DNA from: Glaciimonas sp. CA11.2 | GTDB taxonomy: Bacteria; Pseudomonadota; Gammaproteobacteria; Burkholderiales; Burkholderiaceae_D | DNA: 64,000 nucleotides | Direction: 5' to 3' | NCBI RefSeq assembly: GCF_034314045.1 | Contig: NZ_JAVIWL010000001.1 | Coordinates: 2,976,001 to 3,040,000, forward strand | Shown here: positions 9,918 through 38,245 of the stretch, piece after piece | Position numbering within the stretch: the first letter of the stretch is position 1 | Layout of the letters: each line of letters opens with the position of its first letter | Translations under genes and position numbers: made by a program | The notes under the pieces: generated by a model | The model's input: the letters and a program-made list of their open reading frames with translations, nothing else | The model's database searches: none | Told to the model about the DNA's origin: nothing

Positions 9918-11204
9918 ATGAACAGATGTTTTAAGCAACTCCCACGTGCTAAACGCTTGTCATGGAAAGTCATTTTCCTGATGCCGGTATATTCCTGCAT
10001 GACGGCTTCTGCCGCCACTAACGATCTGGTTCCAACCGACGTCATACCACTGCCCGAAATTATGATATTGCCGCCTGACACTATTACTCCATATGCCGGG
10101 GTTGGGGTGACTTACGATAACAATGTATTGCGCTTGCCAAATGCGGCAGCGGGACAGGCCCTCGGGATCGGAAGCGGTCTGTCGGACGTGACGCGCCGGG
10201 CTGAAGTTGGCGTTGGTCTTGATGAAAAAATCGGGCAGCAACATGTAACTGCAAATGCAGATATCGCAAAAGTCAATTACAACCGCTTTACCGAACTTGA
10301 TCACCTCGACAAGAATGCATCCGGCAACTTGAACTGGCATGTAGGTAATCACGTTGAAGGAAATGTTGGGGCAAGCTACTCACAGGGACTTACCCCTTTT
10401 GTCGATTTTCATCAACTGGCACAGAATATCCGGACGCAGGTAAATGAGTATGCGGATGCAGCTTGGCTATTCCACCCAAGTTGGCGGGTCAACGCCGGTC
10501 TCGTGCATACCGACTTATCCTATGACCTTGCATCGCAGAACGCGCTGAACAACAAGCAGAATCAAGAGCTTATCGGGCTTGATTATCTGGCCGCCAGCGG
10601 CAGCACCTTCGGACTTCAATTGCGTCATACGCGCGCCAATTTTCCGAATCCGCAGCAGGATGGAAATTTTTTCATTAACAACAGCTACGATCAAAATGAG
10701 GTCAAAGCGAAGATCGATTGGCTGGCTACGGGCATCACCCGCGTGCATTTTTTAGGGGGATGGGTGAGCCGTAAGCAGGACGCATTTTCGGTCCGGAATT
10801 TCAGCGGAATTAATTCCCGGCTTTCTGTCGACTGGTCGCCGACCTCAAAAGTCGATGTTACTGTTTCTGCCTGGCGAGAGATCGGGGCCGTAGATGATCT
10901 TACCTCTGTCTACTCTCTGAATCGTGGCGCAAGCGCCGCTGCCAGTTGGCATTATTCCGAAAAAATCCGACTCGTAGCGCAGTACAAATACGAAAAAAGA
11001 GACTTCAGCCAATCGACTGACTCGGGTGCACTCGGTGTTGACCCCAATGACGCATTGCGCAATCTGGCGCTGACTTTGGTGTATAAGCCGACGCTACGTT
11101 GGGAGATTCAGTTATCAGCCACCCGCAGTACGCAGACTGTATCAAATTTTAACGGCGGTTATTCAAGCAATGCAGTAGTACTCAATACGCGTTATATCTT
11201 TTAG
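9918..11204 (+). CDS. epsL: Outer-membrane beta-barrel exopolysaccharide protein EpsL
   Basis: A 428-residue protein matching EpsL of XrtB-type exopolysaccharide operons, a predicted outer-membrane barrel thought to help the polymer leave the cell. It starts with a signal peptide (hydrophobic KVIFLMPVYSCMTASAA, cleavage near ASA-A). The mature start TPYAGVGVTYDNNVLRLP and the repeated amphipathic strands with aromatic residues to the terminal NAVVLNTRYIF, ending in phenylalanine, are typical of barrel proteins. It is the first gene of the locus, with the long AT-rich leader upstream and only 12 bp before the next gene. The role is known only by association within the family. Confidence 0.85.
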   Translation: MNRCFKQLPRAKRLSWKVIFLMPVYSCMTASAATNDLVPTDVIPLPEIMILPPDTITPYAGVGVTYDNNVLRLPNAAAGQALGIGSGLSDVTRRAEVGVGLDEKIGQQHVTANADIAKVNYNRFTELDHLDKNASGNLNWHVGNHVEGNVGASYSQGLTPFVDFHQLAQNIRTQVNEYADAAWLFHPSWRVNAGLVHTDLSYDLASQNALNNKQNQELIGLDYLAASGSTFGLQLRHTRANFPNPQQDGNFFINNSYDQNEVKAKIDWLATGITRVHFLGGWVSRKQDAFSVRNFSGINSRLSVDWSPTSKVDVTVSAWREIGAVDDLTSVYSLNRGASAAASWHYSEKIRLVAQYKYEKRDFSQSTDSGALGVDPNDALRNLALTLVYKPTLRWEIQLSATRSTQTVSNFNGGYSSNAVVLNTRYIF

Positions 11205-11216
11205 AGGGGCGACAAA

Positions 11217-12599
11217 ATGACTGAGAACGACATCCCACTAGTCACATTCTTCAAGCGGATGCTTGATCCGATGATTATTCTTGGTTTGTTGTATTTGATC
11301 ATTGTGTATGAAGGTGAGTTATTCACCGGGAGTTATCTGCTCCTGATGATTCTCACTTTCTTTATCTCCTCTTACGTCTATGACCAGATTGAACTTTACC
11401 GCACGCAGTACGCAGGAAATCGCCTTGCTTATGTCGGAGATATTTTGTTTGGTTGGGCAATTATCGTCGTTATTTTGATGTTGATTGGGCAGGCTAGCGG
11501 ACTGCGGTATGAATTTTCTGATCGTATCATATTACTTTGGGCTACTCTTGCGCCGCTCGCGCTGTTACTCAGTCGCATTACCGCTTATGGCTTGGTATTC
11601 AATACCCGAAAAGCTGATGTAATACGGTCAGCTGTCATCATCGGTTCGAATGACCCGGGTGGTGCTTTGCTCCAACGAATACAATCTCATCGAAATCCCG
11701 CTGTGGAGATGCTTGGATTTTTTGACGACCGTGATCAATCAGTTCGCCCCGCTGGACTCGATTGCGCCTATTTGGGAGCGTTTGGAGAGGTGGGTCCATA
11801 TCTCAGCTCGCACAAGATCAAGACAATTTTTATTTGTTTGCCAATGTCGGCGACCCCTCGCACTTTGACGTTACTCGATGTGATTCGCGATAGCACGGCA
11901 TCGGTGTACTTTATTCCTGATATTTATACTTTTGATTTGATGCAGGCGCGTTTGGATCATGTCGGTGGAATACCGGTCATCGGTGTTTGCGAGACGCCAT
12001 TTATGGGTTTCAGTAGTGTGGTCAAACGCGGTAGCGATATTATTCTCGCGCTAATTATCCAGATTATTTTGCTGCCGCTGATGCTAATGATTGCCATAGG
12101 CATCAAATTATCATCACCCGGACCGGTCATTTTTTCCCAGCGCCGCTATGGGTTGAACGGTGAAGAGATTATCGTTTATAAATTTCGTTCCATGACAGTT
12201 TGCGAAGATGGCCCCGTGGTCGCGCAGGCTAAAAAAAATGATGTCCGGATCACGCGATTTGGTGCGTTTTTACGTCGAACTTCGCTAGATGAATTGCCGC
12301 AGTTCATTAATGTATTGCAAGGGCGAATGAGTATCGTAGGCCCGCGTCCACATGCAGTCGCACACAATGAAATGTATCGCAAGTTGATTAAAGGATACAT
12401 GTTGCGACACAAGGTAAAGCCTGGCATCACAGGATGGGCTCAGGTCAATGGATTTCGCGGGGAGACCGATACAGTCGAAAAAATGCGTTCGCGCATTAAG
12501 TTTGATCTGGAGTATTTGCAGAACTGGTCTTTTGCACTCGATCTGATGATCATCCTGCGGACCGTAAAGGAAGTATTGAAAAAAGATAGCGCCTATTAA
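11217..12599 (+). CDS. Undecaprenyl-phosphate glucose phosphotransferase (WcaJ/GumD type)
   Basis: A 460-residue polyisoprenyl-phosphate hexose-1-phosphate transferase. It starts the repeat unit by moving a sugar phosphate, usually glucose-1-P from UDP-glucose, onto undecaprenyl phosphate. The N-terminal half has four hydrophobic segments (residues about 14-125), then a nucleotide-binding-like domain (RSAVIIGSNDPGG), then the C-terminal catalytic domain with KRGSDIILALIIQ, SSPGPVIFSQRRYG, YKFRSMTV, RRTSLDELPQFINVLQG, MSIVGPRPHAVAHNE and KPGITGWAQVNGFRGET. These are all family signatures and the length is normal for GumD/WcaJ. It follows epsL by 12 bp. Glucose is the likeliest first sugar by family; the sequence alone does not prove it. 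Confidence 0.92.
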   Translation: MTENDIPLVTFFKRMLDPMIILGLLYLIIVYEGELFTGSYLLLMILTFFISSYVYDQIELYRTQYAGNRLAYVGDILFGWAIIVVILMLIGQASGLRYEFSDRIILLWATLAPLALLLSRITAYGLVFNTRKADVIRSAVIIGSNDPGGALLQRIQSHRNPAVEMLGFFDDRDQSVRPAGLDCAYLGAFGEVGPYLSSHKIKTIFICLPMSATPRTLTLLDVIRDSTASVYFIPDIYTFDLMQARLDHVGGIPVIGVCETPFMGFSSVVKRGSDIILALIIQIILLPLMLMIAIGIKLSSPGPVIFSQRRYGLNGEEIIVYKFRSMTVCEDGPVVAQAKKNDVRITRFGAFLRRTSLDELPQFINVLQGRMSIVGPRPHAVAHNEMYRKLIKGYMLRHKVKPGITGWAQVNGFRGETDTVEKMRSRIKFDLEYLQNWSFALDLMIILRTVKEVLKKDSAY

Positions 12600-12734
12600 G
12601 TGGAAAAAATTTACGTTAGTGAAATTTGCATAATATTTGCAGAAAAAGGTTTAAATTTTTTTTGAAATAGTTATGTCTCTTTCGTTGTAGCCTCAAAGTG
12701 GCGGTGTGATGTGGATCTTCTTAGGAGCAAGATC

Positions 12735-13280
12735 ATGCAAAAACTGTTATTGGTGGTGATTCTAGCGCTCTTAGCATATAGCGGTTGCTTGCTTGCAGCG
12801 ACACCTACTTTTCAACTGACGCCTATCCCAGTCAGGCTGCCGCGGCTTATGGAGTTGGATAGCGATGTGATGATTAATGTCGCTGAAGACGTCGATAACG
12901 CGATTCAGATAGATGGTGATGTGTTGGCCGACACTGCCGCTGCTCGCGTTTTTGGGCCGCGTGAAAAATTAGTTGATTTCGCCGTGATGGAAGAGGCCGT
13001 TTTATCTGATCGCACTGAAAGTTTTCACAACGTGAATTTTATGCGCAGTTCCAATGGCGAGCATGCCCTAAAAAATATTTTCACCAACAAAAGATACTGG
13101 AGTGGATCGCTCTATATATTCCTGAAAGATTTGAGGATGCGATCAGATCAAAAATCGAAGAGCTGGTCCGTGCTTTTGATTGTGCTGTTTTTCGTTCTAT
13201 ATTGGGGCCGTCGCAGGCCAGCGCGCACATACCTCCGTCTACATTCAGAATCTAAAGGCGGACAAGCGCACAGTATTTAA
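12735..13280 (+). CDS. Unrecognised exported protein with C-terminal membrane anchor
   Basis: A 181-residue protein I do not recognise. It has a hydrophobic N-terminus (KLLLVVILALLAYSGCLLAA) with a possible lipobox-like YSGC, an acidic middle part, and a second hydrophobic segment (SWSVLLIVLFFVLYWG) followed by RRR and a 22-residue polar tail. The arrangement, signal peptide plus C-terminal helix with basic stop, looks like a membrane-anchored periplasmic protein. No PEP motif precedes the helix, so it is not a clear exosortase substrate. The ATG at 12735 is chosen for the AGGAG at 12723; a GTG at 12711 is also in frame. It sits between the initiating transferase and epsD, where the function is probably tied to polymer export. 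Confidence 0.6.
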   Translation: MQKLLLVVILALLAYSGCLLAATPTFQLTPIPVRLPRLMELDSDVMINVAEDVDNAIQIDGDVLADTAAARVFGPREKLVDFAVMEEAVLSDRTESFHNVNFMRSSNGEHALKNIFTNKRYWSGSLYIFLKDLRMRSDQKSKSWSVLLIVLFFVLYWGRRRPARTYLRLHSESKGGQAHSI

Positions 13281-13321
13281 AGACATTGCAGCTAATTTTC
13301 GCGTAGCGAAAAACTGCAAAC

Positions 13322-14230
13322 ATGAGAAACAATAGTGACACCTTGCGGGAGCAGGACGTGAACTTCGCTAACCTGGTCAACTTTTTACGCGGCAACTATT
13401 TTCAGCTCGTGATAGCGCCGCTTTCATTGCGAACCGCGAGATGGCTGGCGCTGTTGGTTACTATGTCTGTAATGAACCTGGCCGCTTGTAATGACCGTAA
13501 AGAGATGATGAGCAAGACATTGGTAACAGTTAATGGCGATGCGATTACGGCGCGACAACTAGACGCCGAGGTGCGGTTCCAAAATCCGATTGTGCGTAAT
13601 CAGGCTTTGGAAATATTAATCAATCGTAAGTTATTACTAACAGAGGCGTTGCGGCAAAAAACTGATCGCAATCCGGAGGTCATTGATTTTATTGAACGCT
13701 TGAAAACACAAGTAATTGTGCAGACTTATCTAGATTTTATAGGAGTCAAAGCGGCCAAACCTTCTAACTCAGAAATCGATACTTATTTTAAGTTGCATCC
13801 GGAATTATTTGCGCACAGGAAGATCCTTGAGATTCAGCAATTAAGTATCGCTGCGCAAGATTATTCTGTGTCGATCAAGCAGATGATGGACAACGAGAGT
13901 TCGCTAAGTAAGATAGCGCTTTTGCTGGATACGCAAAAAATTGCGTACATAAAATCTACCCATTCGTACACCAGTGGCGACATGCCCACGGAGACTATCA
14001 AGAATCTCATCGAGATGGGTAGTAACCATTTATTTATCTTGGAAAATGGAACTCAGTCATTGCTTTGCGCGTTGAGTGCCATACGGGACAGTCCGTTGAC
14101 GATTCAAGATGCCGCACCACAGATTGAATACCATTTATTTATTGAAAAGATGCGGAAGGTAGCGGCGATTCAAATTGCAAAATTACGGTCGTCATCAAAA
14201 ATTGATTACGCCTCCGATTCAGCACAATAA
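13322..14230 (+). CDS. epsD: EpsD-family peptidyl-prolyl isomerase-like lipoprotein
   Basis: A 302-residue protein of the EpsD family, found only in EpsDEFG-type exopolysaccharide operons and related to SurA/parvulin isomerases. A hydrophobic segment ends in the lipobox MNLAAC, so it is probably a periplasmic lipoprotein. After it come KTLVTVNGDAITARQLDAEV and ALEILINRKLLLTEA, the SurA-like N-domain, then a degenerate parvulin-like part (HRKILEIQQLSI). The N-terminus before the Cys is unusually long (about 56 residues); a GTG at 13358 preceded by GGGAGCAGGAC is a plausible alternative start. It is followed by epsE after 72 bp. It may chaperone the export complex, but this is unproven for the family. 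Confidence 0.8.
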   Translation: MRNNSDTLREQDVNFANLVNFLRGNYFQLVIAPLSLRTARWLALLVTMSVMNLAACNDRKEMMSKTLVTVNGDAITARQLDAEVRFQNPIVRNQALEILINRKLLLTEALRQKTDRNPEVIDFIERLKTQVIVQTYLDFIGVKAAKPSNSEIDTYFKLHPELFAHRKILEIQQLSIAAQDYSVSIKQMMDNESSLSKIALLLDTQKIAYIKSTHSYTSGDMPTETIKNLIEMGSNHLFILENGTQSLLCALSAIRDSPLTIQDAAPQIEYHLFIEKMRKVAAIQIAKLRSSSKIDYASDSAQ

Positions 14231-14302
14231 GACACCATATTTAGAGTAACAGTTTTTGGGAAGATTTTTTATCAAGAAAAAACTAACTGGATGAGGATAA
14301 TA

Positions 14303-15091
14303 ATGAACCGATTCTACGCAAGCATGCTGGCACTATTGTTAGCAATTTTCACCTTATCAGCCATGGCGGCCGATGTCCCTTTGGGCGCGGGTGATGCGCT
14401 GAAGATCTCCGTGTTTGGCAACCCTGATTTAAGCCTGGATACCAAAGTCAGCGAAGCCGGTAACATTACATTTCCGTTGATCGGCGATGTCAGTATAAGC
14501 GGTCTGTCGACAGCAGAAGCTGAGAAAAAAATCTCTGGGTTGTTGACAAGCGGTGGGTTTCTGCGCAAGGCAGAAGTAAATATTATGGTCACGGAATTAC
14601 AGAGCCAGCAGGTCTCGATACTTGGGCAAGTGCTCCGTCCCGGACGATATCCGATTAATGGAACGCGTAGCGTCACGGACATGTTGGCAGTGGCAGGTGG
14701 TGTCGGGCCGGAAGGCGGGGATACCGCCACCGTGGTGCGCACCCGCGATGGGAAAACAAATAAGCAAGTCATCAATCTGGTTGAAATGATCCAGTCATCC
14801 GACATGCATAGCAATCTGGAACTGATCAATGGCGACATGGTGTACGTCGACCGCGCTCCCAAATTTTATATTTATGGTGAAGTACAGCATCCCGGAGGCT
14901 ATCGGCTGGAACGCAATATGACCATTACACAGGCTTTGTCCATTGGTGGCGGTCTAACTCCTCGCGGAACTGAGCGTGGCTTGCGGATCAAACGGCGCGA
15001 TACAAGCGGTTCTGTACAGATGATTGACGTTAAAGGTGGCGTGGAACTCCTTCCAGATGACGTCGTATATGTGAAAGAGAGCCTGTTTTGA
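14303..15091 (+). CDS. epsE: Polysaccharide export protein EpsE (Wza-like)
   Basis: A 262-residue Wza-type polysaccharide export protein, forming the periplasmic and outer-membrane channel for the polymer. It has a signal peptide (hydrophobic MLALLLAIFTLSAMA, then AD), the PES domain (VPLGAGDALKISVFGNPDLS, EAGNITFPLIGDVSISG) and two SLBB repeats (QVSILGQVLRPGRYPING and FYIYGEVQHPGGYRLE). The ending DDVVYVKESLF is typical of the EpsE subgroup, which lacks the C-terminal amphipathic helix of E. coli Wza, so how it crosses the outer membrane is unclear; EpsL may provide the pore. The ATG at 14303 is chosen for AGGA 5 bp before it. Gene order epsD-E-F-G is canonical. Confidence 0.92.
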   Translation: MNRFYASMLALLLAIFTLSAMAADVPLGAGDALKISVFGNPDLSLDTKVSEAGNITFPLIGDVSISGLSTAEAEKKISGLLTSGGFLRKAEVNIMVTELQSQQVSILGQVLRPGRYPINGTRSVTDMLAVAGGVGPEGGDTATVVRTRDGKTNKQVINLVEMIQSSDMHSNLELINGDMVYVDRAPKFYIYGEVQHPGGYRLERNMTITQALSIGGGLTPRGTERGLRIKRRDTSGSVQMIDVKGGVELLPDDVVYVKESLF

Positions 15092-15215
15092 TTGCCGCCT
15101 TTAATGCTTCTACGGCGTTTGGTGCTTAATTTGTAGGTGGCAACGCTGGCGATCGTCGCAACGACACACGCTAGGTTGCCGTGAAGTCTCATGTTTGGAT
15201 GCGAGAGAGATTTTT

Positions 15216-16631
15216 ATGACTTTTCCTCAGCTTTTAATTATTCTGCGCGCCCGTTACAAGATCATTTTATTGACCTTGTTCATTACGGTGGCGCTGACCG
15301 TTGCGGTCAGCTTGGTGTTACCTAAGACGTATAAAACGTCAACCACTTTGCTGCTGAATTTCAAAGGAACCGATCCGGTGTCAGGCCAGGTGCTGCCAAC
15401 ACAGTTGGCGTCCGGTTATATGGCAACGCAGGTCGATCTGATCACTAGCAGAAGCGTGGCACTGAAAGTTGCCGACAACATGAGGCTGGCCAACAATCCA
15501 GTTGTCTTGCAGCGCTTCAAAAAAGTCAATAAAGGCGAAGGCTCGATCCGCGAATATCTGGCGGATTATCTCCTGAAAATGGTCGAGGTAGCGCCAACAC
15601 GAGAAAGCAGCATGCTGGAAATTATTGGTAAAGGCAGCGATCCGATTTTGGCGGCGTCCGTCGCCAATGGCTTTGCCGCTGCCTATCAGCAACTCAATCT
15701 TCAGATAAAAATTACACCTTTGCAACAGGCATCGAAATATTTCGAGATACAGGTAAAAAACTTGCGAACCGAACTGGAAGTGTCACGTAATAAACTTTCT
15801 CAATACCAACAACAGCATGGCCTGGTAAGTACCGACAACCATCTTGATGTGGAATCGAACCGCTTGAATGAACTGTCTACCCAATTAGTGTTGGCGCAGG
15901 CGCAAGCGATTGAGGCCTCGTCGCGCGGCAATCAGGCAATGGGTAGCGCTGGAAGAGATTCTCCTGATGTGATCGGCAATTCACTGATTCAAAATCTGAA
16001 AGCGTCGGTGGCCCAGGCGGAAGGAAAATTTGCGCTGTTATCGCAAAATCTTGATCGCAATCATCCTCAATATCAGGCAGCCAAAGCGGAGGTAGACCGA
16101 CTTCGGGCTGAGCTCAATAGTAATATCAGCGCAACGAACAATGGGACTGCCAATAACGGTCGGATTTTACGTCAGCGAGAAGCGGAAGTCCGTGCTGCGA
16201 TGAAAGCACAAACTGCTAAAGTGCTGCAACTTAACCGTACTCGCGACGAGATGATGGTCCTGGTGAAGGATTCCGACAATGCACAGCGCGCCTACGACGC
16301 AGCTAATCTACGATTGACACAAACTGAACTTGAAGGCAAATCGAACCAGTCTGACGTCACCGTCCTTAATCCAGCGGCAGTCCCGGTGCTGCCTGTCAGT
16401 CCAAATATAGTACTTAACACGGTGCTGTCGGTACTAATGGGCACCATGCTGGGGTTGGCGCTGGCGGTGTTGGCAGAAATGTCCAATCGCCGTATTAGAA
16501 CTGCGGATGAGTTATCCAACTTGCTTAATGCACCAATGCTCGGAACGATAATTGCGGAGAAACCTAGGCGTAGCTATGACGTTAAAAGCATCGGCTTCTC
16601 TCAGCGCTTACTTCTCAGTTGGAAGGGTTAA
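15216..16631 (+). CDS. epsF: Chain-length determinant protein EpsF
   Basis: A 471-residue polysaccharide co-polymerase (Wzz/PCP-2 type) that sets polymer length and links Wzy to the export channel. The Wzz domain begins right at the N-terminus (FPQLLIILRARYKIILL, first membrane helix about residues 18-39), followed by PKTYKTSTTLLLNFKG, a long coiled-coil periplasmic region (residues about 170-360), and the second membrane helix (IVLNTVLSVLMGTMLGLALAV) after the Pro-rich AAVPVLPVSPN. The kinase domain is missing from this chain and is supplied by epsG, 5 bp downstream. ATG 15216 is preceded by GAGAGAGA; a TTG at 15195 also lies in frame. Confidence 0.92.
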   Translation: MTFPQLLIILRARYKIILLTLFITVALTVAVSLVLPKTYKTSTTLLLNFKGTDPVSGQVLPTQLASGYMATQVDLITSRSVALKVADNMRLANNPVVLQRFKKVNKGEGSIREYLADYLLKMVEVAPTRESSMLEIIGKGSDPILAASVANGFAAAYQQLNLQIKITPLQQASKYFEIQVKNLRTELEVSRNKLSQYQQQHGLVSTDNHLDVESNRLNELSTQLVLAQAQAIEASSRGNQAMGSAGRDSPDVIGNSLIQNLKASVAQAEGKFALLSQNLDRNHPQYQAAKAEVDRLRAELNSNISATNNGTANNGRILRQREAEVRAAMKAQTAKVLQLNRTRDEMMVLVKDSDNAQRAYDAANLRLTQTELEGKSNQSDVTVLNPAAVPVLPVSPNIVLNTVLSVLMGTMLGLALAVLAEMSNRRIRTADELSNLLNAPMLGTIIAEKPRRSYDVKSIGFSQRLLLSWKG

Positions 16632-16636
16632 TCACA

Positions 16637-17512
16637 ATGAACAATCCGGTTACTTCGATCGTCAATCCCTCAATGGCGATTACCAAGGATGCAAGTATCG
16701 GGCGCATGCTTGTGGAGCAAGGAAAAATCACCCTTGAGCAAGCTGAATGCGTGAACCGTTTGCAAGAAGAGGAAGGTCTGCGCTTCGGCGATGCGGCAAT
16801 ACGCCTTGGACTAGTCTGCGAGTCAGACATACAGAAAATTCGCGAACACCAAATTGTTTATCCCTATCAAACGGTCGGTACGGGTATTTTTTCAGAATCG
16901 CTAACGGCTGCGTATCAACCGTTTAGTGCAGAAGTCGAAATGCTTCGAAATGTACGTAGCCAATTGATGTTGCAATGGTTCGCTGCCGGCAATAAGAAGC
17001 TGGCAATTGCCAGTGTCAATCCGGGCGATGGTAACAGTTTGTTTGCAGCCAATCTGAGCGTGGTGTTCTCGCAATTGGGCAATCCCACGCTGTTGGTCGA
17101 TGCCAATCTGCGGCGTCCGCGTCAGCACGAAATATTTAGTCTCAATCGTGGCCATGGTTTATCTGATCTTTTAGCGGGGAAAATGGGCCTCGAAATGCTG
17201 GTCAGAGCAGAGACATTTTTGGATCTCTCTATTCTGCCTGCTGGCTCAAGTGTGCCTAATCCGCAAGAGCTGATTAATCGTTCAGCTTTTGGTGTAATGA
17301 ATGAAAAATTATGCGATCTTTACGACATCATTTTATATGACACACCAGCATTTACGAGCGCAGCAGACTGTCTAACCATCGCATCACGTGCTGGCGGCGT
17401 GCTGTTGGTGGTCCGAAAAAACCATACACGAGTGGCCGATATCACTGCTTTCAGCGATCAATTACGGCGCAGCGGTACTGAAATCGTGGGGTCCGTGATG
17501 GTGAGTTTCTGA
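16637..17512 (+). CDS. epsG: EpsG-type BY-kinase homologue with altered Walker motifs
   Basis: A 291-residue protein of the EpsG chain-length kinase family, which pairs with EpsF as a split bacterial tyrosine kinase. An N-terminal GspE-N-like domain (ASIGRMLVEQGKITLEQAE) precedes the ParA/MinD-like kinase fold. The motifs are unusual: the Walker A loop reads NPGDGNSL, with Asn133 where Lys or Arg binds phosphate; Walker A' reads LLVDANLRR, with Asn157 for the second Asp; Walker B is IILYDTPAF, with Ala for the second Pro. No Tyr-rich tail is present. Kinase activity may thus be weak or lost, leaving a structural role. ATG 16637 follows GGAAGGG; an in-frame TTG upstream overlaps epsF and is rejected. 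Confidence 0.85.
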   Translation: MNNPVTSIVNPSMAITKDASIGRMLVEQGKITLEQAECVNRLQEEEGLRFGDAAIRLGLVCESDIQKIREHQIVYPYQTVGTGIFSESLTAAYQPFSAEVEMLRNVRSQLMLQWFAAGNKKLAIASVNPGDGNSLFAANLSVVFSQLGNPTLLVDANLRRPRQHEIFSLNRGHGLSDLLAGKMGLEMLVRAETFLDLSILPAGSSVPNPQELINRSAFGVMNEKLCDLYDIILYDTPAFTSAADCLTIASRAGGVLLVVRKNHTRVADITAFSDQLRRSGTEIVGSVMVSF

Positions 17513-17677
17513 TGGATTGAACGACGTCATCGGCATGGCGCCGATATAGGTTTTGTATTCCGCAAAAAAATGTTGCAGCTACGCGGCTTTTATCTTGACT
17601 CGCGGGAATACCTGCATCATCTGAGCGGATATAGCACCGTTTTATTACCTGATTAAAGACTATAGGCTAGTTACTGT

Positions 17678-20159: not shown

Positions 20160-20209
20160 ATTGGAACAACGGAAAATTTTCTAACTACATTAAATTTACG
20201 GCGCAAACC

Positions 20210-21301
20210 ATGAGAACAACAAGAGTGAATGCGACGGCAGCATTGGTGCGATCAACCATCCCCATATCGATTAAAGATCGGTGGTGGCGTATTTTAAAAA
20301 TCGTGCTAACGATAGCCGTGGTGGCCGGATGTGTGCTGGTTTCGCCCATCACGTCCGCTAATTGCATTGATGGAAAGCAGATGGCAGGAGTCAATTTAAG
20401 CGGTGCCGAATTTGCTTCAGAAAAATTACCGGGCACCCTTTTTAAGGACTATGTCTATCCTGATCTCGCAGATATGCGCTATTTTAAAACGTTGGGGATG
20501 AACACCTTTCGCCTGCCATTTCTGTGGGAGCGGATACAACCCCAGTTATTCGGAGCACTGGATCAAGCAGAGTTACAAAGAATAGTGGATACCGTTTCGG
20601 CAGGTCGGTCAATTGGCGCGTGCGTAATACTCGACGTGCATAATTATGGCGAATATCGTGGGCAGCCTATCGGTTCGGTTCAGGTGCCGCGGGCCGCATT
20701 GAGCGATTTATGGGTGCGCTTGTTACCGTCGTTCAAAGATCCAACGAACGTCGCGTTTGACCTGATGAACGAACCCAGCAAAATTTCGATTGGCAGTTGG
20801 GTAATCACGGCACAGGAAACAGTTAATGCCCTGCGTCGAAGTGGTGCAAAAAATATGATTCTAGTTGCAGGCGGAGGGTGGAGCGGCGCGCACTCGTGGT
20901 TCTCGAAAGAGGGCGGCATTTCAAACGCCGAAGGTTTTAAAACCTTTCATGATCCTGCCAATAATTACATGATCGAGGCGCATCAATATGCAGATTCAAA
21001 TTTCTCCGGCACCCATACAAATTGTATTGAACCAGAGCGTCTGACAAAGATCATGGTTGATTTGACCCAATGGGGTGTTTTGACCAGGCAGCGTTTGTTT
21101 CTGGGTGAGTTCGGCGTATCGGCCAACGCGCAATGTCTCGATGCATTGACGGCGATGGTAGAAAAAATGAAAGGTAGTCTGGTGTGGGGCGGATGGACTT
21201 ACTGGTCGGCTGGTAAATGGCTTGGGTCATATCCATTGAGTATCCATCCCGACAGTAATGGAGACAAACCGCAAATCGCAATTTTAAAAAACGGTATGTG
21301 A
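20210..21301 (+). CDS. Exported GH5-family endoglucanase-like enzyme
   Basis: A 363-residue glycoside hydrolase of family 5 (cellulase fold). A hydrophobic segment at residues about 28-46 (RILKIVLTIAVVAGCVLV) is either an uncleaved anchor or a long signal peptide, placing the enzyme in the periplasm or outside. The catalytic acid/base is E188 in AFDLMNEPSK and the nucleophile E300 in RLFLGEFGVSA; other GH5 motifs are TFRLPFLWERIQP, VILDVHNYGEYRG and MIEAHQYAD. Glycanases encoded inside exopolysaccharide operons trim or clear polymer stuck in the periplasm; a beta-glucan backbone as substrate is inferred. Active-site residues are complete. Confidence 0.9.
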   Translation: MRTTRVNATAALVRSTIPISIKDRWWRILKIVLTIAVVAGCVLVSPITSANCIDGKQMAGVNLSGAEFASEKLPGTLFKDYVYPDLADMRYFKTLGMNTFRLPFLWERIQPQLFGALDQAELQRIVDTVSAGRSIGACVILDVHNYGEYRGQPIGSVQVPRAALSDLWVRLLPSFKDPTNVAFDLMNEPSKISIGSWVITAQETVNALRRSGAKNMILVAGGGWSGAHSWFSKEGGISNAEGFKTFHDPANNYMIEAHQYADSNFSGTHTNCIEPERLTKIMVDLTQWGVLTRQRLFLGEFGVSANAQCLDALTAMVEKMKGSLVWGGWTYWSAGKWLGSYPLSIHPDSNGDKPQIAILKNGM

Positions 21302-21414
21302 GTTAGTAACGTGCAATGCCAGTGAGATTTAAAGGGGCTAGGGGTGTATGCGCACGACGAAATTTGTTGATCTTTACCGTCCTTTACGCGCAATTGAACT
21401 AGGAAAATAAAACT

Positions 21415-22896
21415 ATGGAGCAGATTAATAGCCACGGCAACGTCATATCCGGATCAACCTGGTCGATCATGGACAACCTTGCACAACAGGTACTCTCGTT
21501 CGCTATTTTCGCGGTCCTGGCGCGCTTTCTGGAACCTGATGCATTCGGCTTATTAACGGTGGCACATCTCTTTATTTTGTTCACTCGATTAGTGGTATTT
21601 GACGCGATTGCCATGCCCGTGGTGCGAGCCGCGGATCCCGACGACAAACTTTATTCTTGGGTATTTACCTATTGCACGGTTATTGGTTTTTTGTTGGCTT
21701 GTTTAATGTTTTGTTCTGCTGGCGTCGTTTCAACATTATTTGGCGCACCCGAGCTTAAGTCGGTTTGGCAGGGTATGAGTATCTCGATTCTATTTTTTGG
21801 TGTGGTGCGTGCGTTTGAGGCCCGGCTAGTGCGTAACATGATGTTTCGTCAGCTGGCGATCAGATCGATTTTTTCAGTCACGCTAGGCGGTATCGTTGGG
21901 ATATCGCTAGCGGTTAGTGGTGTCGGTGGGATGTCGTTAGTGGGGCAGCAGGTAACGGCTTCGGGTTTGGCGTTGTTGCTTGTGATGTTACAGAGCCGTT
22001 GGTTACCACGCATCGTTTTTGATCGTGCATTAACTCAGCGATTTTGGATAGATTCGCGGCAGGTATCCATTGCGGGATTTTTAGACTTTGTCAGTACCAA
22101 CGGCGACGCATTATTGGTCAGCGTTTGTTTGGGGCCCTATGCGACTGGTCTTTACAATATGGCAAAACGGATGACTTCCTCGGTCTATCTGTTGATATCC
22201 AGTTCAATGCACAAAGTAGCTTTGCCTGTATTTTCAAATTCACAGTCGAATGCAGTGGCCTTACAACTCGGTTACTTAAAGATTCTCGGCATTACCTTGT
22301 TTTGTGCGGCACCGTTACTGTGCTTCCAAGCTGAGTTGGCGCGGCCTTTGATCGCGGTTGTATTCGGGCAGAAGTGGTTGCCAGCAGCACCCACCGTCGG
22401 TGCTTTGGCAATTCTCTATTTGATCGCATCGATTCTCGATTTAAATGATTACTTGTTTTTTGCGATTGGAAAAAATCGTGTTCCGGTAGTTCTCGGAATC
22501 GCAAAATTGACTCTCGCCGGCGGCCTTTCAGCTTTTTTTTATCGATTTGGTTTGCTTGGTATGAGCCTGTCGTTTTGCGCCGCTCATCTTATTTTGTTTC
22601 CGCTATCGCAAACGTTGATTAGCCGAGCAATTGGCCTAAATACACGCATAACTTTATATGCGCTGGCGCCGCCGGTAGTGGGAAGTATTATTTTATGGGT
22701 CGGATTAGCCTGCTATGTACTAGTAATGTCCAATCGCTTTAACGATGTGACGTTAATCGTGGGGGGCACTCTGCTTGCGAGTTTGTTGTATCCAGGTATG
22801 GTTGCCATTACTGGGTGGCGTGTCAGAGACGTGAATGGTTCGTGGCAAGAAGTGCTGTTACTAACACTCCGGATACGCCGATTTTTTACGCGTTGA
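21415..22896 (+). CDS. Wzx-type polysaccharide flippase
   Basis: A 493-residue multi-pass protein of the MOP superfamily (PST/WzxC-like), which flips lipid-linked repeat units across the inner membrane. The N-terminal pattern ISGSTWSIMDNLAQQVLSFAIFAVLARFLEP and the segment LEPDAFGLLTVAHLFI are characteristic when taken piece by piece, as are FLDFVSTNGDALLVSVCLGPYATGLYNMAKR (second repeat) and PVFSNSQSNAVALQLGYLK. About 12-14 hydrophobic segments are visible. It lies among the transferase genes after the GH5 gene, and a GumJ-like role is expected. No frameshift is seen. Confidence 0.9.
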   Translation: MEQINSHGNVISGSTWSIMDNLAQQVLSFAIFAVLARFLEPDAFGLLTVAHLFILFTRLVVFDAIAMPVVRAADPDDKLYSWVFTYCTVIGFLLACLMFCSAGVVSTLFGAPELKSVWQGMSISILFFGVVRAFEARLVRNMMFRQLAIRSIFSVTLGGIVGISLAVSGVGGMSLVGQQVTASGLALLLVMLQSRWLPRIVFDRALTQRFWIDSRQVSIAGFLDFVSTNGDALLVSVCLGPYATGLYNMAKRMTSSVYLLISSSMHKVALPVFSNSQSNAVALQLGYLKILGITLFCAAPLLCFQAELARPLIAVVFGQKWLPAAPTVGALAILYLIASILDLNDYLFFAIGKNRVPVVLGIAKLTLAGGLSAFFYRFGLLGMSLSFCAAHLILFPLSQTLISRAIGLNTRITLYALAPPVVGSIILWVGLACYVLVMSNRFNDVTLIVGGTLLASLLYPGMVAITGWRVRDVNGSWQEVLLLTLRIRRFFTR

Positions 22897-23002
22897 TGGT
22901 GGAAATTTTGTTTTATCTTTCAGAGGCAAAAGATTGCTAGAGAAATTTTTTTTCTTCCTTCTTTTGCGGTCGCAGTATTTTGCGGTTTTGTGGGAGTTAT
23001 CC

Positions 23003-23740
23003 ATGAGCTTAGAGAAAATGAATCCAATCGCTGGTTATCCGGTGCGTAAAACAACTTCCCGGGTATTGGCAGGTGCGTTGCGTCGCACCCTCAGAAGAAA
23101 TAAAAAAACGACGCTATTTTTTGCTAATACGAATTTTATCGTTCAGTGTCGTTATCTGCTGGACAGGATGAGATCCGATTCAGTGCTGATTGTGAACGAC
23201 GGCGTAGGAATGGATATTGCAGCATTCTTATTTTCCAGTCAAAAGTTTGATGAAAATCTTAATGGCACTGATTTTATTCCTTATTTTTTTTCCGAATCGG
23301 CGCAGTCAATGCGCGTTTTTATGCTCGGTAGCAAACCTGAAACGCTGACTAAAGCAGCTCATCATCTGCGCGACGTGTTGGGTCAGACCGTGGTGGGTGC
23401 CTGCGACGGATATGGTGGGTTTAAGGAGAATTCTGGCAGTTTGATCGAAGCCATTAACTTTACTGAGGCCGAGGTACTTTTGGTGGCGCTAGGCAATCCG
23501 ATTCAGGAGGAGTGGATCCTCGCGAATCGCGACATGCTAAATGCAAACCTGGTGATTGGCGTCGGTGCTTTATTCGATTTCTGGAGTGGTGACAAACAGC
23601 GTGCACCTCTTTTTGTGCAACGGACCAGGCTCGAATGGCTTTATCGGCTCTGTCTGGAACCACGACGATTGTTGTTTCGCTACACGGTCGACATCTTGCG
23701 ATTTTTGTTGTTGTGTCGTAAGCATCGCTGGGATATTTGA
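23003..23740 (+). CDS. WecG/TagA/CpsF-family glycosyltransferase (GumM-like)
   Basis: A 245-residue GT26 transferase. Members include GumM, which adds the second glucose in xanthan synthesis, and WecG. Motifs visible are TLFFANTNFIVQCRYLLDRM, the catalytic NDGVGMDIAAFLF with its Asp, FDENLNGTDFIPYFF, VFMLGSKPETLTKAA, VGACDGYGGF, LLVALGNPIQEEWI and GVGALFDFWSGDKQRAP, all characteristic. The C-terminal Arg-rich LEWLYRLCLEPRRL associates with the membrane. ATG 23003 is preferred because of GGGAG 8 bp before it; a TTG at 22934 would add 23 mostly hydrophobic residues. The sugar donor is inferred from the Gum comparison. Confidence 0.9.
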   Translation: MSLEKMNPIAGYPVRKTTSRVLAGALRRTLRRNKKTTLFFANTNFIVQCRYLLDRMRSDSVLIVNDGVGMDIAAFLFSSQKFDENLNGTDFIPYFFSESAQSMRVFMLGSKPETLTKAAHHLRDVLGQTVVGACDGYGGFKENSGSLIEAINFTEAEVLLVALGNPIQEEWILANRDMLNANLVIGVGALFDFWSGDKQRAPLFVQRTRLEWLYRLCLEPRRLLFRYTVDILRFLLLCRKHRWDI

Positions 23741-23816
23741 AGGGATTAGAGTCAAGTGCGATTCACTGTTAAAGCGTCTGTATCATTTTCGATTACCTTT
23801 TGTAGGGAGTATAAAA

Positions 23817-25031
23817 ATGAAAGCGATGATATTAGCTGCAGGTAGGGGCACGCGAGTTCGTCCTCTGACTTATGACCTTCCCAAACCGATGATACCAATT
23901 TTGGGCAAACCAGTGATGGCTTATCTGATCGAGTTTCTTGCCAGTTATGGCGTACGCGACATTATGGTAAATGTTAGCTATTTACACCACAAAATTGAAG
24001 AGTATTTCTGTAACGGAAGCCAGTTCGGGGTACAGATTGGTTATTCGTTTGAAGGCTATATAAACGATAACGGCGAGTTAATCCCAGAACCGTTGGGTTC
24101 GGCGGGCGGCATTAAGAAGATTCAGGAATTTGCTCACTTTTTTGATGACACGACCATTGTGATTTGTGGCGACGCGTTAATCGATCTGGATCTGACTTCC
24201 GCGCTGTTTGAGCACAAACAAAAAGGTGCAATGGTGAGTGTTGTCACTAAGAAAGTACCGTGGGAGAAGGTCGATAGTTACGGTGTGGTAGTAACCGATC
24301 TCGATGGACGGATCAAGTCGTTTCAGGAGAAGCCAAAACAGGAAAATGCATTATCCAACTTTGCTAGCACGGGGATTTATATCTTTGAGCCCGAAGTCAT
24401 TGATCTCATACCGGTTGGGACATCGTTTGACATCGGCTCCGACCTGTTCCCCTTGTTAGTTGAAAAAGGCTTGCCATTTTATGCGCAACAGCGATTCTTC
24501 AACTGGATCGACATAGGCACTGTGACCGACTATTGGAGCGTGCTGCAAAGTGTTTTATTAGGTGAGGTCGCGCAAATGGAAGTTCCCGGAACACTGATTG
24601 CCGACGGCGTGTGGATTGGTCTTAACACCAGCATTGACTGGAATGGAACGACGATTCAAGGTCCGGTTTATATTGGTGCCGGTTGTCTGATTGAATCTGG
24701 TTGCACTATCATTGGCCCGACCTGGATTGGACATGGCTGCCACATATGTTCTGGTTCCACACTGGTGCGCAGCGTCTTGTTTGAGTACACGCGGATATTC
24801 CCCGAGGCTTCGTTGGAAGAAATGGTGATCGTAAAGGAATATGGCGTTACCCGTGGTGGGGAAATGTCGTTATCGTCAACGACCGGCAAGCGCTCATGGT
24901 GTGATGCACGCCATCAGCTACATAAAACAATATTCTTGCCTAAAAATAAGGCTGCATCAACAAATTCACAGAATGGTGACGATACGATTTCTGACGCGAA
25001 TTTGATAGACGACTCGGTGAGCAGGGTATGA
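23817..25031 (+). CDS. Sugar-1-phosphate nucleotidyltransferase (GDP-mannose pyrophosphorylase-like)
   Basis: A 404-residue nucleotidyltransferase of the GMPP/RmlA superfamily, joining a sugar-1-phosphate to a nucleotide. The N-terminus has the loop MILAAGRGTRVRPLTYDLPKP, split here as AAGRGTRVRPLT and PKPMIPILGKP, then GSAGGIKKI, VICGDALIDLDL (metal-binding Asp), FQEKPKQENALSNFASTGIY and FNWIDIGTVTDYW. The C-terminal third is a left-handed beta-helix of hexapeptide repeats (VWIGLNTSIDWNGTTIQGPV), followed by about 60 polar residues with no clear homology. ATG 23817 follows AGGGAG at 7 bp. Its stop overlaps manC by 4 bp. The sugar could be mannose or glucose; ManC next door makes one of two redundant, so the split of roles is open. 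Confidence 0.85.
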   Translation: MKAMILAAGRGTRVRPLTYDLPKPMIPILGKPVMAYLIEFLASYGVRDIMVNVSYLHHKIEEYFCNGSQFGVQIGYSFEGYINDNGELIPEPLGSAGGIKKIQEFAHFFDDTTIVICGDALIDLDLTSALFEHKQKGAMVSVVTKKVPWEKVDSYGVVVTDLDGRIKSFQEKPKQENALSNFASTGIYIFEPEVIDLIPVGTSFDIGSDLFPLLVEKGLPFYAQQRFFNWIDIGTVTDYWSVLQSVLLGEVAQMEVPGTLIADGVWIGLNTSIDWNGTTIQGPVYIGAGCLIESGCTIIGPTWIGHGCHICSGSTLVRSVLFEYTRIFPEASLEEMVIVKEYGVTRGGEMSLSSTTGKRSWCDARHQLHKTIFLPKNKAASTNSQNGDDTISDANLIDDSVSRV

Positions 25032-26446: not shown

Positions 26447-26570
26447 GAAAATTGATAATTGATCATTCGCATTCTTCATATGCGTATTTCTTATACGATT
26501 TTTTCGATTTAAATTGTAGAGAAGTTGGTAGTTGAAGTTAATTGTTAATGTTTTATTGGGAGATAAAATC

Positions 26571-27539: not shown

Positions 27540-27667
27540 AACATCGCTTTCATTCAATATAACAATTTTGTGTCTTACATTTTTTTACGACCCTACGATC
27601 AGACGTACGTTTTCAATAGTAAATCGAATCTCTGTTTTGCAGATGTGCCTCAACAGGAGCTAACACG

Positions 27668-28789
27668 ATGAGATCATTAGTGATTACCGCACATGATTAC
27701 AGATCGCGGCGGAAGGTGAACATGCATTTCATCGCTGCAGAATTGGCGAAATATGGTCCGACCAGTTTTTTTTCATGCCAATACAGTTTTCTTTCCCAAT
27801 TAAAATCGGATCCTCGGAGTTCTTTGGATAGGCTCGCCAATAAAGTGGAGATGTACGAAGGTGTTAATTGCTACCTTTGGAAAACAATTATCCATCCAAT
27901 CAACTTGCGCAAGGGTGCTTTTTATCCTATCGAAAAATTTCTATTTAAACGTTACATCGACCATCCCAGTCCGGTGCTGGTGGAGTGGATACAAAATGCC
28001 GATGTAGTGGTATTTGAAAGTGGCATAGCACCAATTTTCTTTGATTTAGTGCGACGCCTCAATCCGCAGGCAAAAACTATTTATCTCGCCTCGGATGATC
28101 TCGATACCATTAACGTCGCATCTTATGTAAAAGATACGTTCGCCCGAGTCGGGCCGAAAATGGATGCGCTTTGCCTAACGTCGCGCATGCTGGCTGATCG
28201 GATGCCAAGTCTGGAAAACTGTTATGTGATCCCGCACGGTTTCGATTATTCGGTGGAAGATCATGCCGATCCCTCGCCGTATGGGCCGGGTCTGCATGCG
28301 GTATCGGTTGGGTCTATGCTATTCGATCCCAGTTTTTTTGTCATCGCATCGGCAATGTTCCCGGAAGTCACATTTCATATTATTGGGTCGGGCACGGGAG
28401 CCGAGCCGGGGTACGGAAAGAATGTAGTGGTCCATGAAGAAATGCCACATCAGGCTACGTTACCCTATATCAAGCACGCGACGATGGGCATCGCACCTTA
28501 TCGTTCGAGCGAGGTGCCACGCTATCTTTCCGATACGTCCATGAAGCTAATGCAATATGATTTTTTTCGGTTGCCAGCGGTATGCCCGGTGGGGATTGCT
28601 GGTGACTATCCATCGCGCTTTGGGTATATTCCGAGCGATGCCGACTCGATCGGGCAGGCTATTCGTGCAGCACTGGTGGCACCGCGTATAGCGCCGAAAA
28701 GAACGCCTTTGCGTTGGTCTGAAGTGATGGAGCGGTTACTGGCGCCCGATACGTTTGCAGACACGAAATTGACCGACTTCACCGTGTGA
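27668..28789 (+). CDS. GumK-like glucuronosyltransferase
   Basis: A 373-residue GT-B glycosyltransferase resembling GumK (GT70), the inverting enzyme that adds glucuronic acid from UDP-GlcA to the lipid-linked Glc-Glc-Man unit at the membrane. GumK-like stretches include VITAHDYRSRRKVNMHFIA, ADVVVFESGIAPIFFD, TIYLASDDLDTINV, VIPHGFDYSVEDHADPSPY and MGIAPYRSSEVPRYLSDTSMK; the Asp near the start of the protein matches the place of the catalytic Asp of GumK. AGGAG stands 8 bp before the ATG. It is the last gene of the locus, 128 bp after the AT-rich DUF535 gene. UDP-glucose dehydrogenase, which would make the donor, is not in the window. Confidence 0.75.
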   Translation: MRSLVITAHDYRSRRKVNMHFIAAELAKYGPTSFFSCQYSFLSQLKSDPRSSLDRLANKVEMYEGVNCYLWKTIIHPINLRKGAFYPIEKFLFKRYIDHPSPVLVEWIQNADVVVFESGIAPIFFDLVRRLNPQAKTIYLASDDLDTINVASYVKDTFARVGPKMDALCLTSRMLADRMPSLENCYVIPHGFDYSVEDHADPSPYGPGLHAVSVGSMLFDPSFFVIASAMFPEVTFHIIGSGTGAEPGYGKNVVVHEEMPHQATLPYIKHATMGIAPYRSSEVPRYLSDTSMKLMQYDFFRLPAVCPVGIAGDYPSRFGYIPSDADSIGQAIRAALVAPRIAPKRTPLRWSEVMERLLAPDTFADTKLTDFTV

Positions 28790-31739: not shown

Positions 31740-31818
31740 GTGTTTCTCTTCACGCAGCGTACAAATAATAGGCATTAACGCTTCATGGCGTATCCCAATC
31801 AGCGCCGCTTAGATTTCT

Positions 31819-37438: not shown

Positions 37439-37454
37439 AGGATATATCTTATGT

Positions 37455-37982: not shown

Positions 37983-38245
37983 GATGTCGGGTTCTTTACA
38001 AGTGTAAGAAGACAAAGATGAAGGCAAATCCGTACGAGAGCCATAAAAGGGCGCAATGCGAAATGCAGCGAAAGACGCACTAACGTTTTTCCCAAATAAA
38101 CATTGGACTATTATTTAAAAAGCGAAGGACCATTTTCAACTAAATAGCGTCGAGAAAAATCTGAAAATTTACGAGATTGGTCTATAAATAAAAGTCTTTG
38201 ATGGCAGAGTAATCTGTGTGAATGAACGGATTTTTCTATTCGCCA

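What the first reader, a model, noticed from the sequence alone, without database searches (positions are those of the whole stretch)
9918..28789. Hybrid exopolysaccharide locus: Eps-type export module with xanthan-like sugar transferases
Seen: epsL, epsD, epsE, epsF, epsG and, in the same direction, GumD-like, GumH-like (GT4), GumM-like (GT26) and GumK-like (GT70) transferases with ManC, Wzy, Wzx and a GH5 glycanase. Known: xanthan, acetan and cepacian-type polymers share a Glc-Glc-Man-GlcA start. Inference: this locus makes a polymer with that start but sends it out through the EpsDEFGL apparatus. GumI, GumL, ugd and phosphomannomutase were not seen, so the side chain may be shorter than in xanthan.
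Basis: partly seen in the sequence, partly recalled or inferred. Interest (0 to 1): 0.7.

Follow-up and report, generated by a model that had tools for sequence, protein, structure and literature searches.

The report
Xanthan-like sugar locus, methanolan-type exporter
A Glaciimonas-like bacterium carries a gene set that should build a short-branched cousin of the food thickener xanthan and send it out through another family's export machine; this pairing recurs in many beta- and gammaproteobacteria, and the part labelled as the exporter's kinase looks inactive and carries a possible second-messenger sensor.

Summary
Window 9918-28789 holds a one-directional locus: EpsL, GumD, EpsD-G, Wzy, GumH, GH5, Wzx, GumM, NTP-transferase, ManC, DUF535, GumK. 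Against a Pseudoxanthomonas gum locus, GumH, GumM and GumK are 48-53% identical, but export, flippase and polymerase proteins only 25-34%. All nine GumK residues checked are kept. Best reading: a xanthan-type tetrasaccharide repeat (Glc-Glc-Man-GlcA). UDP-sugar dehydrogenases lie elsewhere in the genome, a phosphomannomutase in a second copy of the locus.

It is no one-off hybrid. Of 80 named loci, 55 are Eps-type; 46 of 48 with enough flank carry the GH5, against 0 of 16 Xanthomonas-type gum loci. GumK and a GT2 replace each other in close kin. The genome holds two whole copies and one decayed copy. The cepacian comparison does not hold.

Unexpected: the EpsG 'tyrosine kinase' lacks the Walker A lysine, as do 62 of 64 homologues and 29 of 30 further family members. 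Its N-terminus resembles a MshEN c-di-GMP domain (weak by E-value): a probable pseudokinase with a possible second-messenger sensor.

The parts
9918..11204 (+). EpsL, outer-membrane beta-barrel of the XrtB/methanolan Eps group
   Evidence: TIGR03014 383 bits against cut-off 275; Pfam BBP2_2
11217..12599 (+). GumD/WcaJ-like undecaprenyl-phosphate glucose-1-phosphate transferase (step 1)
   Evidence: TIGR03023 514 bits against 411; 43% to gum-locus GumD
12711..13280 (+). unassigned 189-aa protein, signal-like start and hydrophobic C-terminal segment (by eye); fast-evolving but kept in position
   Evidence: no family; about 23-52% to copies in kin
13322..14230 (+). EpsD, peptidyl-prolyl isomerase family
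   Evidence: TIGR02925 110.3 bits against 108.9
14291..15091 (+). EpsE, outer-membrane polysaccharide export protein (OPX)
   Evidence: TIGR03028 326 against 263 bits; 34% to GumB
15195..16631 (+). EpsF, chain-length co-polymerase (PCP-2) without its own kinase domain
   Evidence: TIGR03017 544 against 423 bits; 25% to GumC
16637..17512 (+). EpsG: MshEN-like N-terminal domain plus a BY-kinase fold lacking the Walker A lysine (probable pseudokinase); the ORF can also start at 16619
17678..19012 (+). Wzy-type polymerase, GumE homologue
   Evidence: 27% to GumE, E 7e-25; no family model
19002..20159 (+). GumH-like GT4 (expected alpha-1,3-mannosyltransferase, step 3)
   Evidence: 50.5%, 380 bits to gum-locus GumH; tree
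20210..21301 (+). GH5 endoglucanase with a signal-like start; expected to cut the beta-1,4-glucan backbone in the periplasm
   Evidence: 314 bits to cellulase 5HPC; the two Glu taken as catalytic (motifs recalled) in 64 of 64 homologues
21415..22896 (+). Wzx flippase
   Evidence: Pfam Polysacc_synt_3 189 bits; 25% to GumJ
22934..23740 (+). GumM-like GT26 (expected beta-1,4-glucosyltransferase, step 2); likely start 23003
   Evidence: 48%, 229 bits to gum-locus GumM, against 89 bits to TagA-type 7MPK
23811..25031 (+). sugar-1-phosphate nucleotidyltransferase with hexapeptide tail, best model a mannose-1-P guanylyltransferase (below cut-off)
   Evidence: NF052502 176 bits against cut-off 440; Pfam NTP_transferase 182 bits
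25028..26446 (+). ManC, mannose-1-P guanylyltransferase / mannose-6-P isomerase (GDP-mannose supply)
   Evidence: TIGR01479 694 against 373 bits
26532..27539 (+). DUF535 (VirK/YbjX family) protein, low G+C (0.36); possible polymer-modifying acyltransferase
   Evidence: Pfam PF04393 124 bits; G+C; GNAT-like fold reported for the family in PMC12562796 (passages)
27668..28789 (+). GumK, GT70 glucuronosyltransferase (step 4)
   Evidence: 436 bits to GumK 2HY7; D157, M231, L232, D234, Y292, L301, S305, K307, Q310 all kept

Best explanation
This is a complete Wzx/Wzy-dependent exopolysaccharide locus of the xanthan family. GumD puts glucose-1-phosphate on undecaprenyl phosphate, GumM adds beta-1,4-glucose, GumH alpha-1,3-mannose (GDP-mannose from ManC) and GumK beta-1,2-glucuronic acid (UDP-GlcA from an unlinked dehydrogenase). 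The lipid-linked tetrasaccharide is flipped by Wzx and polymerised by the GumE-like Wzy through the cellobiose part, giving a cellulose-like backbone with Man-GlcA branches: a natural counterpart of the 'polytetramer' xanthan of gumI mutants. Chain length and export run through the methanolan-type module EpsE (outer-membrane channel), EpsF (co-polymerase) and EpsG, with EpsL and EpsD assisting. EpsG most likely works as a BY pseudokinase whose N-terminal MshEN-like domain senses c-di-GMP, so it would steer EpsF without tyrosine phosphorylation. The exported GH5 trims or clears backbone in the periplasm. Shown: gene content, homology, kept catalytic residues, loss of the EpsG P-loop lysine, MshEN-like model of its N-terminus, recurrence across taxa. 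Inferred: sugar order and linkages, the end of the side chain, GH5 substrate, c-di-GMP binding.
For: Transferase identities 48-53% (GumD 43%) against 25-34% for export, flippase and polymerase proteins; GumK residues (Asp157 and six donor-site residues are named in PMC12768416, passages; D234 and Q310 added from recall); TIGR03023 above cut-off; Eps-type export with GumH in 55 of 80 sampled loci; two UDP-sugar dehydrogenases above cut-off in the genome and an Ugd-like gene (labelled by eye) inside 7 of 48 Eps-type loci; PMM-like gene in the second copy (Pfam run on a Collimonas homologue); GH5 in 46 of 48 Eps-type loci, two Glu 64 of 64; EpsG Lys loss in 62 of 64 and 29 of 30, MshEN motif 18 of 22 positions, 0 of 2000 shuffles as good, 5HTL top match.
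Confidence: 0.7

Rival explanations
1. The repeat is longer than four sugars: an unlinked transferase adds a terminal sugar, as GumI does in xanthan.
For: GumI-like genes sit in 7 of 48 Eps-type loci with enough flank, so a fifth sugar is compatible with this type; the genome's XrtA- and XrtB-type loci hold further transferase-like genes (by eye and weak GumH similarity).
Against: No GumI or GumL homologue in the window locus or the second copy; the only pyruvyl-transferase match in the genome is in an XrtA-type locus. GumI was not searched genome-wide.
Confidence: 0.2
2. The transferases have drifted and the polymer is not xanthan-like in sugar order (for example galactose in place of one residue).
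For: 48-53% identity does not fix specificity; Kozakia with GumD, H, K, M homologues went with a Glc/Gal/Man product by HPLC (PMC5050591, passages).
Against: GumK donor-site residues identical in 53 of 53 sequences, Asp157 in 52 of 53; a cellulase-family hydrolase is co-located in 46 of 48 loci, which fits a beta-1,4-glucan backbone.
Confidence: 0.12
3. EpsG is an active tyrosine kinase that uses an unusual P-loop, and EpsF is controlled by phosphorylation as in Wzc.
Against: Walker A Lys kept in 2 of 64 and 1 of 30; the CapAB K55M mutant entry 2VED has its Met at the aligned site; no Tyr among the last 14 residues of the window protein.
Confidence: 0.15
4. The GH5 is a plant-cell-wall cellulase that merely lies in the locus (the reading given for the endoglucanase in the Kozakia gum-like cluster).
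For: The solved relatives are cellulases or endoglucanases in name (nearly all of the 52 listed); PMC5050591 proposes plant cell wall degradation (passage).
Against: It is kept next to the transferases in Thiobacillus, Marinobacter and Halorhodospira too (not plant-associated, recalled), 46 of 48 loci.
Confidence: 0.2

Closest known systems
Xanthan gum locus (gumBCDEFGHIJKLM), Xanthomonas and other Lysobacterales
   Same: GumD, GumM, GumH, GumK with 43-53% identity; Wzy homologous to GumE, Wzx to GumJ; Wzx/Wzy route
   Different: GumB/GumC replaced by EpsE/EpsF/EpsG plus EpsL and EpsD; GH5 inside the locus; no GumI, GumL or GumF-like gene; ManC and a second nucleotidyltransferase inside the locus
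Methanolan-type eps locus (Methylobacillus sp. 12S; also Herbaspirillum seropedicae, Herminiimonas)
   Same: EpsD, E, F, G, L export set; the genome's own XrtB-type locus has EpsE/F/G 54-56% identical
   Different: methanolan is reported as Glc, Gal and Man (PMC4195743, passages); no exosortase XrtB or EpsI in the window locus, while Janthinobacterium and one Oxalicibacterium version keep XrtB
Acetan and gum-like clusters of acetic acid bacteria (Komagataeibacter, Gluconacetobacter, Kozakia)
   Same: gumD, H, K, M, E homologues; the Kozakia cluster also holds an endoglucanase and ugd (PMC5050591, passages)
   Different: the Kozakia co-polymerase is one 722-aa GumC (PMC5050591, passages) instead of EpsF plus EpsG; acetan holds rhamnose too; a gene-by-gene comparison was not made
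EcpK/EpsV of Myxococcus xanthus (BY pseudokinase with PCP-2)
   Same: separate kinase-fold protein without Walker A lysine or Tyr-rich tail, partner of a PCP-2 lacking a kinase domain (PMC12004946, passages)
   Different: EpsG keeps part of the Walker motifs and carries an added MshEN-like domain, where EcpK is described with an unstructured N-terminus

Membership tests
Xanthan-family (GumD-M-H-K) repeat-unit assembly | glucose-priming transferase of the GumD/WcaJ type | tested here: met
   TIGR03023 514 bits against cut-off 411
Xanthan-family (GumD-M-H-K) repeat-unit assembly | GT26, GT4 and GT70 proteins that are nearer to Gum enzymes than to other members | tested here: met
   GumM 229 bits against 89 to TagA-type 7MPK; GumH 380 bits; GumK 391 bits and 436 to 2HY7. 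Only a few non-Gum members were compared
Xanthan-family (GumD-M-H-K) repeat-unit assembly | GumK catalytic Asp157 and donor-site residues | tested here: met
   all nine positions kept in window and second copy
Xanthan-family (GumD-M-H-K) repeat-unit assembly | polymer contains Glc, Man, GlcA with a cellulosic backbone | not testable with these tools
   needs chemistry
Xanthan sensu stricto (pentasaccharide, pyruvylated) | GumI and GumL in the locus | tested here: not met
   no homologue in window or second copy; one PS_pyruv_trans match in the genome, in an XrtA-type locus
Xanthan gum export (GumB/GumC) | GumB/GumC-type export pair | tested here: not met
   best matches are EpsE/EpsF/EpsG; 34% and 25% to GumB and GumC; co-polymerase tree splits the three Gum rows from 42 others at 100*
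Methanolan/XrtB Eps export module | EpsD, E, F, G, L above curated cut-offs | tested here: met
Methanolan/XrtB Eps export module | exosortase XrtB and EpsI beside EpsG | tested here: not met
   none among the locus ORFs; they lie in a separate locus at C1:3.87 Mb
BY tyrosine kinase | Walker A lysine | tested here: not met
   Asn in window; Lys in 2 of 64 and 1 of 30 homologues; Lys in CapB reference
BY pseudokinase partner of a PCP-2 (EcpK-like) | kinase fold, lost Walker A lysine, no Tyr-rich tail, separate PCP-2 partner | tested here: met
   EpsF adjacent. Lack of activity itself was not testable
MshEN c-di-GMP receptor domain | tandem 24+5+24 motif and four-helix fold | tested here: inconclusive
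MshEN c-di-GMP receptor domain | binds c-di-GMP | not testable with these tools
   needs a binding assay
Cepacian locus | heptasaccharide with Rha and Gal | not tested
   bce genes were not compared; composition from PMC7378592 (passages)

The most novel reading that the evidence does not exclude
The EpsG family (TIGR03029), annotated as chain-length tyrosine kinases in methanolan-type and xanthan-like loci, is a family of c-di-GMP-sensing pseudokinases: c-di-GMP bound by the MshEN domain, not tyrosine phosphorylation, sets the assembly cycle of the EpsF co-polymerase. This would answer how a BY pseudokinase can drive a PCP-2, and in these loci it would couple biofilm second-messenger levels directly to export of a natural short-branch xanthan whose fourth sugar is exchanged (GumK or GT2) between close relatives.
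Probability: 0.4. Interest if true: 0.72.

Novelty: new variant of a known kind. Interest (0 to 1): 0.5.

Why it matters
If right, nature already makes xanthan-like polymers with two or three side-chain sugars (perhaps one, where neither GumK nor GT2 was found) through one exchangeable step, outside Xanthomonas and its kin and with an in-locus backbone hydrolase; short-branch xanthans made by mutants differ in viscosity (polytetramer and polytrimer, PMC4443731, passages). GT70 has a single well-characterised member (PMC12768416, abstract), so the 53 GumK sequences aligned here, 38 of them from outside the classic gum loci, are useful. The pseudokinase-plus-MshEN reading of EpsG would turn an open question on PCP-2 control (PMC12004946, passages) into a simple binding test.

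Tried and rejected
Considered and dropped: (1) Collimonas and Janthinobacterium loci as natural 'polytrimer' makers because no GumK was found in their genomes. Reading the gaps showed a GT2 between GH5 and Wzx in Collimonas, Herbaspirillum and CAVE-383, so I now read GT2 as a substitute for GumK; only loci with neither (8 of 48, three Janthinobacterium among them) remain candidates, and an unread 1.3 kb gap there may hold another transferase. (2) A first survey with six-frame longest ORFs failed in high-G+C loci and was replaced by tblastn. (3) The first genome search used an unrelated family (PF06059) and told only where the window lies. (4) The 189-aa protein: a sub-threshold Peptidase_C93 hit (E 0.044) was not followed. 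(5) DUF535 was not folded; its GNAT-like fold is from PMC12562796 (passages). (6) In the whole-protein structural comparison only residues 80-291 were covered, so the N-terminal domain was modelled alone.

Sampling limits: one search kept the best 80 of 186 relatives of the GumH-like query, so the survey favours near kin. 'Eps-type' means hits to both EpsF and EpsG as best queries; one Eps row (L105, Acetobacter) comes from a different kind of cluster. Three of the 19 'Gum' rows (L058, L108, L110) are not Xanthomonas-type and do carry GH5, so over all Gum-labelled rows with flank it is 3 of 18. The other 16 are 15 rows labelled Lysobacterales plus [Pseudomonas] boreopolis (placed there from recall); one of the 16 (L085) has under 2 kb downstream. 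The 64 EpsG rows are 59 from GumH-bearing loci and 5 from other Eps-like loci; rows under 75% coverage and duplicate loci were dropped. Two dropped rows (L058, L110) carry a canonical GEGKT, so 4 of all rows seen there carry the lysine. The 30 rows are the loci handed out, out of 37 listed hits above cut-off. Trees are 'quick' ones without bootstraps and with long branches.

Literature: in the listings (each capped) of the ten searches, and the passages seen, I found no paper describing this gene combination or an EpsG pseudokinase with MshEN. The methanolan paper itself did not appear in the listing.

Full report
What is there. The window lies at C1:2976001-3040000 of a 5.5 Mb genome whose GumK-like protein is 71-86% identical to proteins named as Glaciimonas, so the host is a Glaciimonas or near kin (Oxalobacteraceae). 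Between 9918 and 28789 sixteen genes run in one direction with gaps of -11 to 165 bp. Their families are given under 'parts'. Upstream lies a PAP2 phosphatase on the other strand and downstream a nucleobase permease.

Repeat-unit assembly. The priming enzyme passes the curated cut-off for undecaprenyl-phosphate glucose phosphotransferase. Compared directly with the gum locus of Pseudoxanthomonas spadix (L089), the window proteins give GumK 53%/391 bits, GumH 51%/380 bits, GumM 48%/229 bits, GumD 43%/261 bits, but EpsE-GumB 34%, Wzy-GumE 27%, EpsF-GumC 25%, Wzx-GumJ 25%. GumK matches the crystallised GumK over 365 residues. Nine GumK positions were checked on 53 sequences: Asp157 in 52, the other eight in 53. 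Asp157 and Tyr292, Ser305, Lys307, Met231, Leu232, Leu301 are named in PMC12768416 (passages); Asp234 and Gln310 were added from recall. The roles of GumD, M, H, K and I in order are as summarised in PMC4443731 (passages).

Precursors and missing genes. The genome has two UDP-sugar dehydrogenases above cut-off (which of them makes UDP-GlcA was not tested), one pyruvyl-transferase-domain match, in an XrtA-type locus, and phosphomannomutase-like genes in the second copy, the decayed copy and near the XrtB locus (Pfam run on a Collimonas homologue). Hence absence of ugd and PMM from the window locus does not limit the product; absence of GumI and GumL does, as far as linked genes go.

Copies. A second whole copy lies at about C1:5.164-5.186 Mb on the minus strand: EpsL, GumD, the 189-aa protein, EpsD-G, Wzy, GumH, acyltransferase, GH5, Wzx, GumM, NTPt, ManC, PMM, GumK, acyltransferase; shared proteins are 49-82% identical to the window's, the 189-aa protein about 26%, EpsL 62%. 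It has two Acyl_transf_3 genes and PMM, and lacks DUF535. A third copy at about C1:1.93-1.95 Mb is decayed: GumH is a remnant (coverage 0.2), EpsG and GumK are missing, EpsD is split and EpsL is a remnant. The genome also has an XrtB locus (EpsL, D, E, F, G, XrtB, EpsI).

Is it a hybrid? A scan of the genome collection (84,980 species) with the GumH-like alignment gave 186 relatives, of which the best 80 were kept. By best tblastn hits, 55 are Eps-type, 19 Gum-type and 6 neither (mostly short). Of 48 Eps-type loci with at least 6 kb on both sides of GumH, 47 have GumM, 46 GH5, 26 GumK, 15 the GT2 (one has both, eight neither), 7 GumI, 8 GumL, 7 an Ugd-like gene, 9 XrtB. The Eps-type rows come from Collimonas, Herbaspirillum, Janthinobacterium, Oxalicibacterium, Thiobacillus, Aromatoleum, Rhodoferax, Sphaerotilus, Marinobacter, Cellvibrio, Aeromonas, Halorhodospira and others. 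Of the 16 Xanthomonas-type gum loci (15 with that flank) none has GH5; three further Gum-labelled rows from other groups do. In the GumK tree the 15 Xanthomonas-type rows form one starred group, and on the drawn midpoint root it lies among Eps-type rows. So the Eps-exported form is the more widespread one in this sample; root and direction are not established. Within the family of the window's genome 10 of 294 sampled genomes have a GumK_N match, 9 over the cut-off, so GumK itself is patchy there.

The fourth sugar is exchanged. Thirteen of 13 Collimonas-like, Herbaspirillum and Janthinobacterium genomes tested have no GumK_N match, whereas three comparison genomes (L074, L080, L105) do (of all 25, 21 had none and one a weak match). 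Yet their loci are otherwise similar, with Wzx and Wzy 53-73% identical. Collimonas, Herbaspirillum and CAVE-383 carry instead a GT2 of about 278 aa between GH5 and Wzx; no such hit was found in the window or the second copy. In the GumH tree the eight Glaciimonas GumK loci and seven GT2 loci form one 98* set, and Thiobacillus shows the same split within one clade. I infer that GumK and GT2 are alternatives for the residue after mannose; the sugar added by GT2 is unknown.

Export module. The co-polymerase tree places the genome's own XrtB-locus EpsF inside a 97* set of 20 rows with the Oxalobacteraceae xanthan-like EpsF, and splits off the three GumC rows at 100*. XrtB is still inside the xanthan-like locus in three of three Janthinobacterium and one of two Oxalicibacterium loci (model run on one), so its absence from the window locus looks like a loss or separation; this is inference.

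GH5. It has an N-terminal hydrophobic segment (by eye), its best solved relative is a cellulase, and the two Glu taken as catalytic are kept in 64 of 64 homologues. The Kozakia gum-like cluster also has an endoglucanase, read there as plant-directed (PMC5050591, passages). Its constancy in genera not tied to plants makes a role in backbone trimming or clearance more likely.

Verdict. It is a new variant of a known kind. The EpsG reading is the most interesting by-product.

Noticed in passing
G000:C1:1925000-1955000 (L167, L168): A third, decayed copy of the locus: GumH and EpsL are remnants, EpsD is split, EpsG and GumK are missing.
   Followed up: partly
G000:C1:5148000-5190000 (L015, L016, L123): A second whole copy with two acyltransferases and a phosphomannomutase-like gene, and without DUF535; two paralogous polymers may be made by one strain.
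   Followed up: yes
window 26532-27539: DUF535 gene at G+C 0.36, well below the other locus genes (0.43-0.53); homologues sit near the same place in Collimonas loci (L126, L127).
   Followed up: partly
window 12711-13280: A 189-aa protein with a signal-like start and a hydrophobic C-terminus, conserved in position but only about 23-52% identical between copies; weak Peptidase_C93 similarity.
   Followed up: no
window 31254-38027, minus strand: Type IV pilus minor pilin cluster with PilY1, PilX, PilW and a pilin with the ComP DNA-uptake-receptor domain.
   Followed up: partly
window 49974-58961, minus strand: A 2995-aa protein with GH94 and glucoamylase-like domains, of the cyclic beta-1,2-glucan synthase type (name recalled).
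   Followed up: partly
window 5284-6300: A transposase-like gene (HTH_38 plus rve; IS30-like from recall) about 3.6 kb upstream of the locus.
   Followed up: no
window 7925-8635, minus strand: A PAP2-family protein resembling undecaprenyl-diphosphate phosphatase (below cut-off), kept in front of the locus in Glaciimonas immobilis too (L021).
   Followed up: no
L045, L046, L049 (Thiobacillus and kin); L064, L066, L068, L071 (Cellvibrio and other gammaproteobacteria): Eps-type loci with GumI-like genes and, in all but L046, GumL-like genes: a near-complete xanthan transferase set with an Eps exporter outside Lysobacterales.
   Followed up: partly
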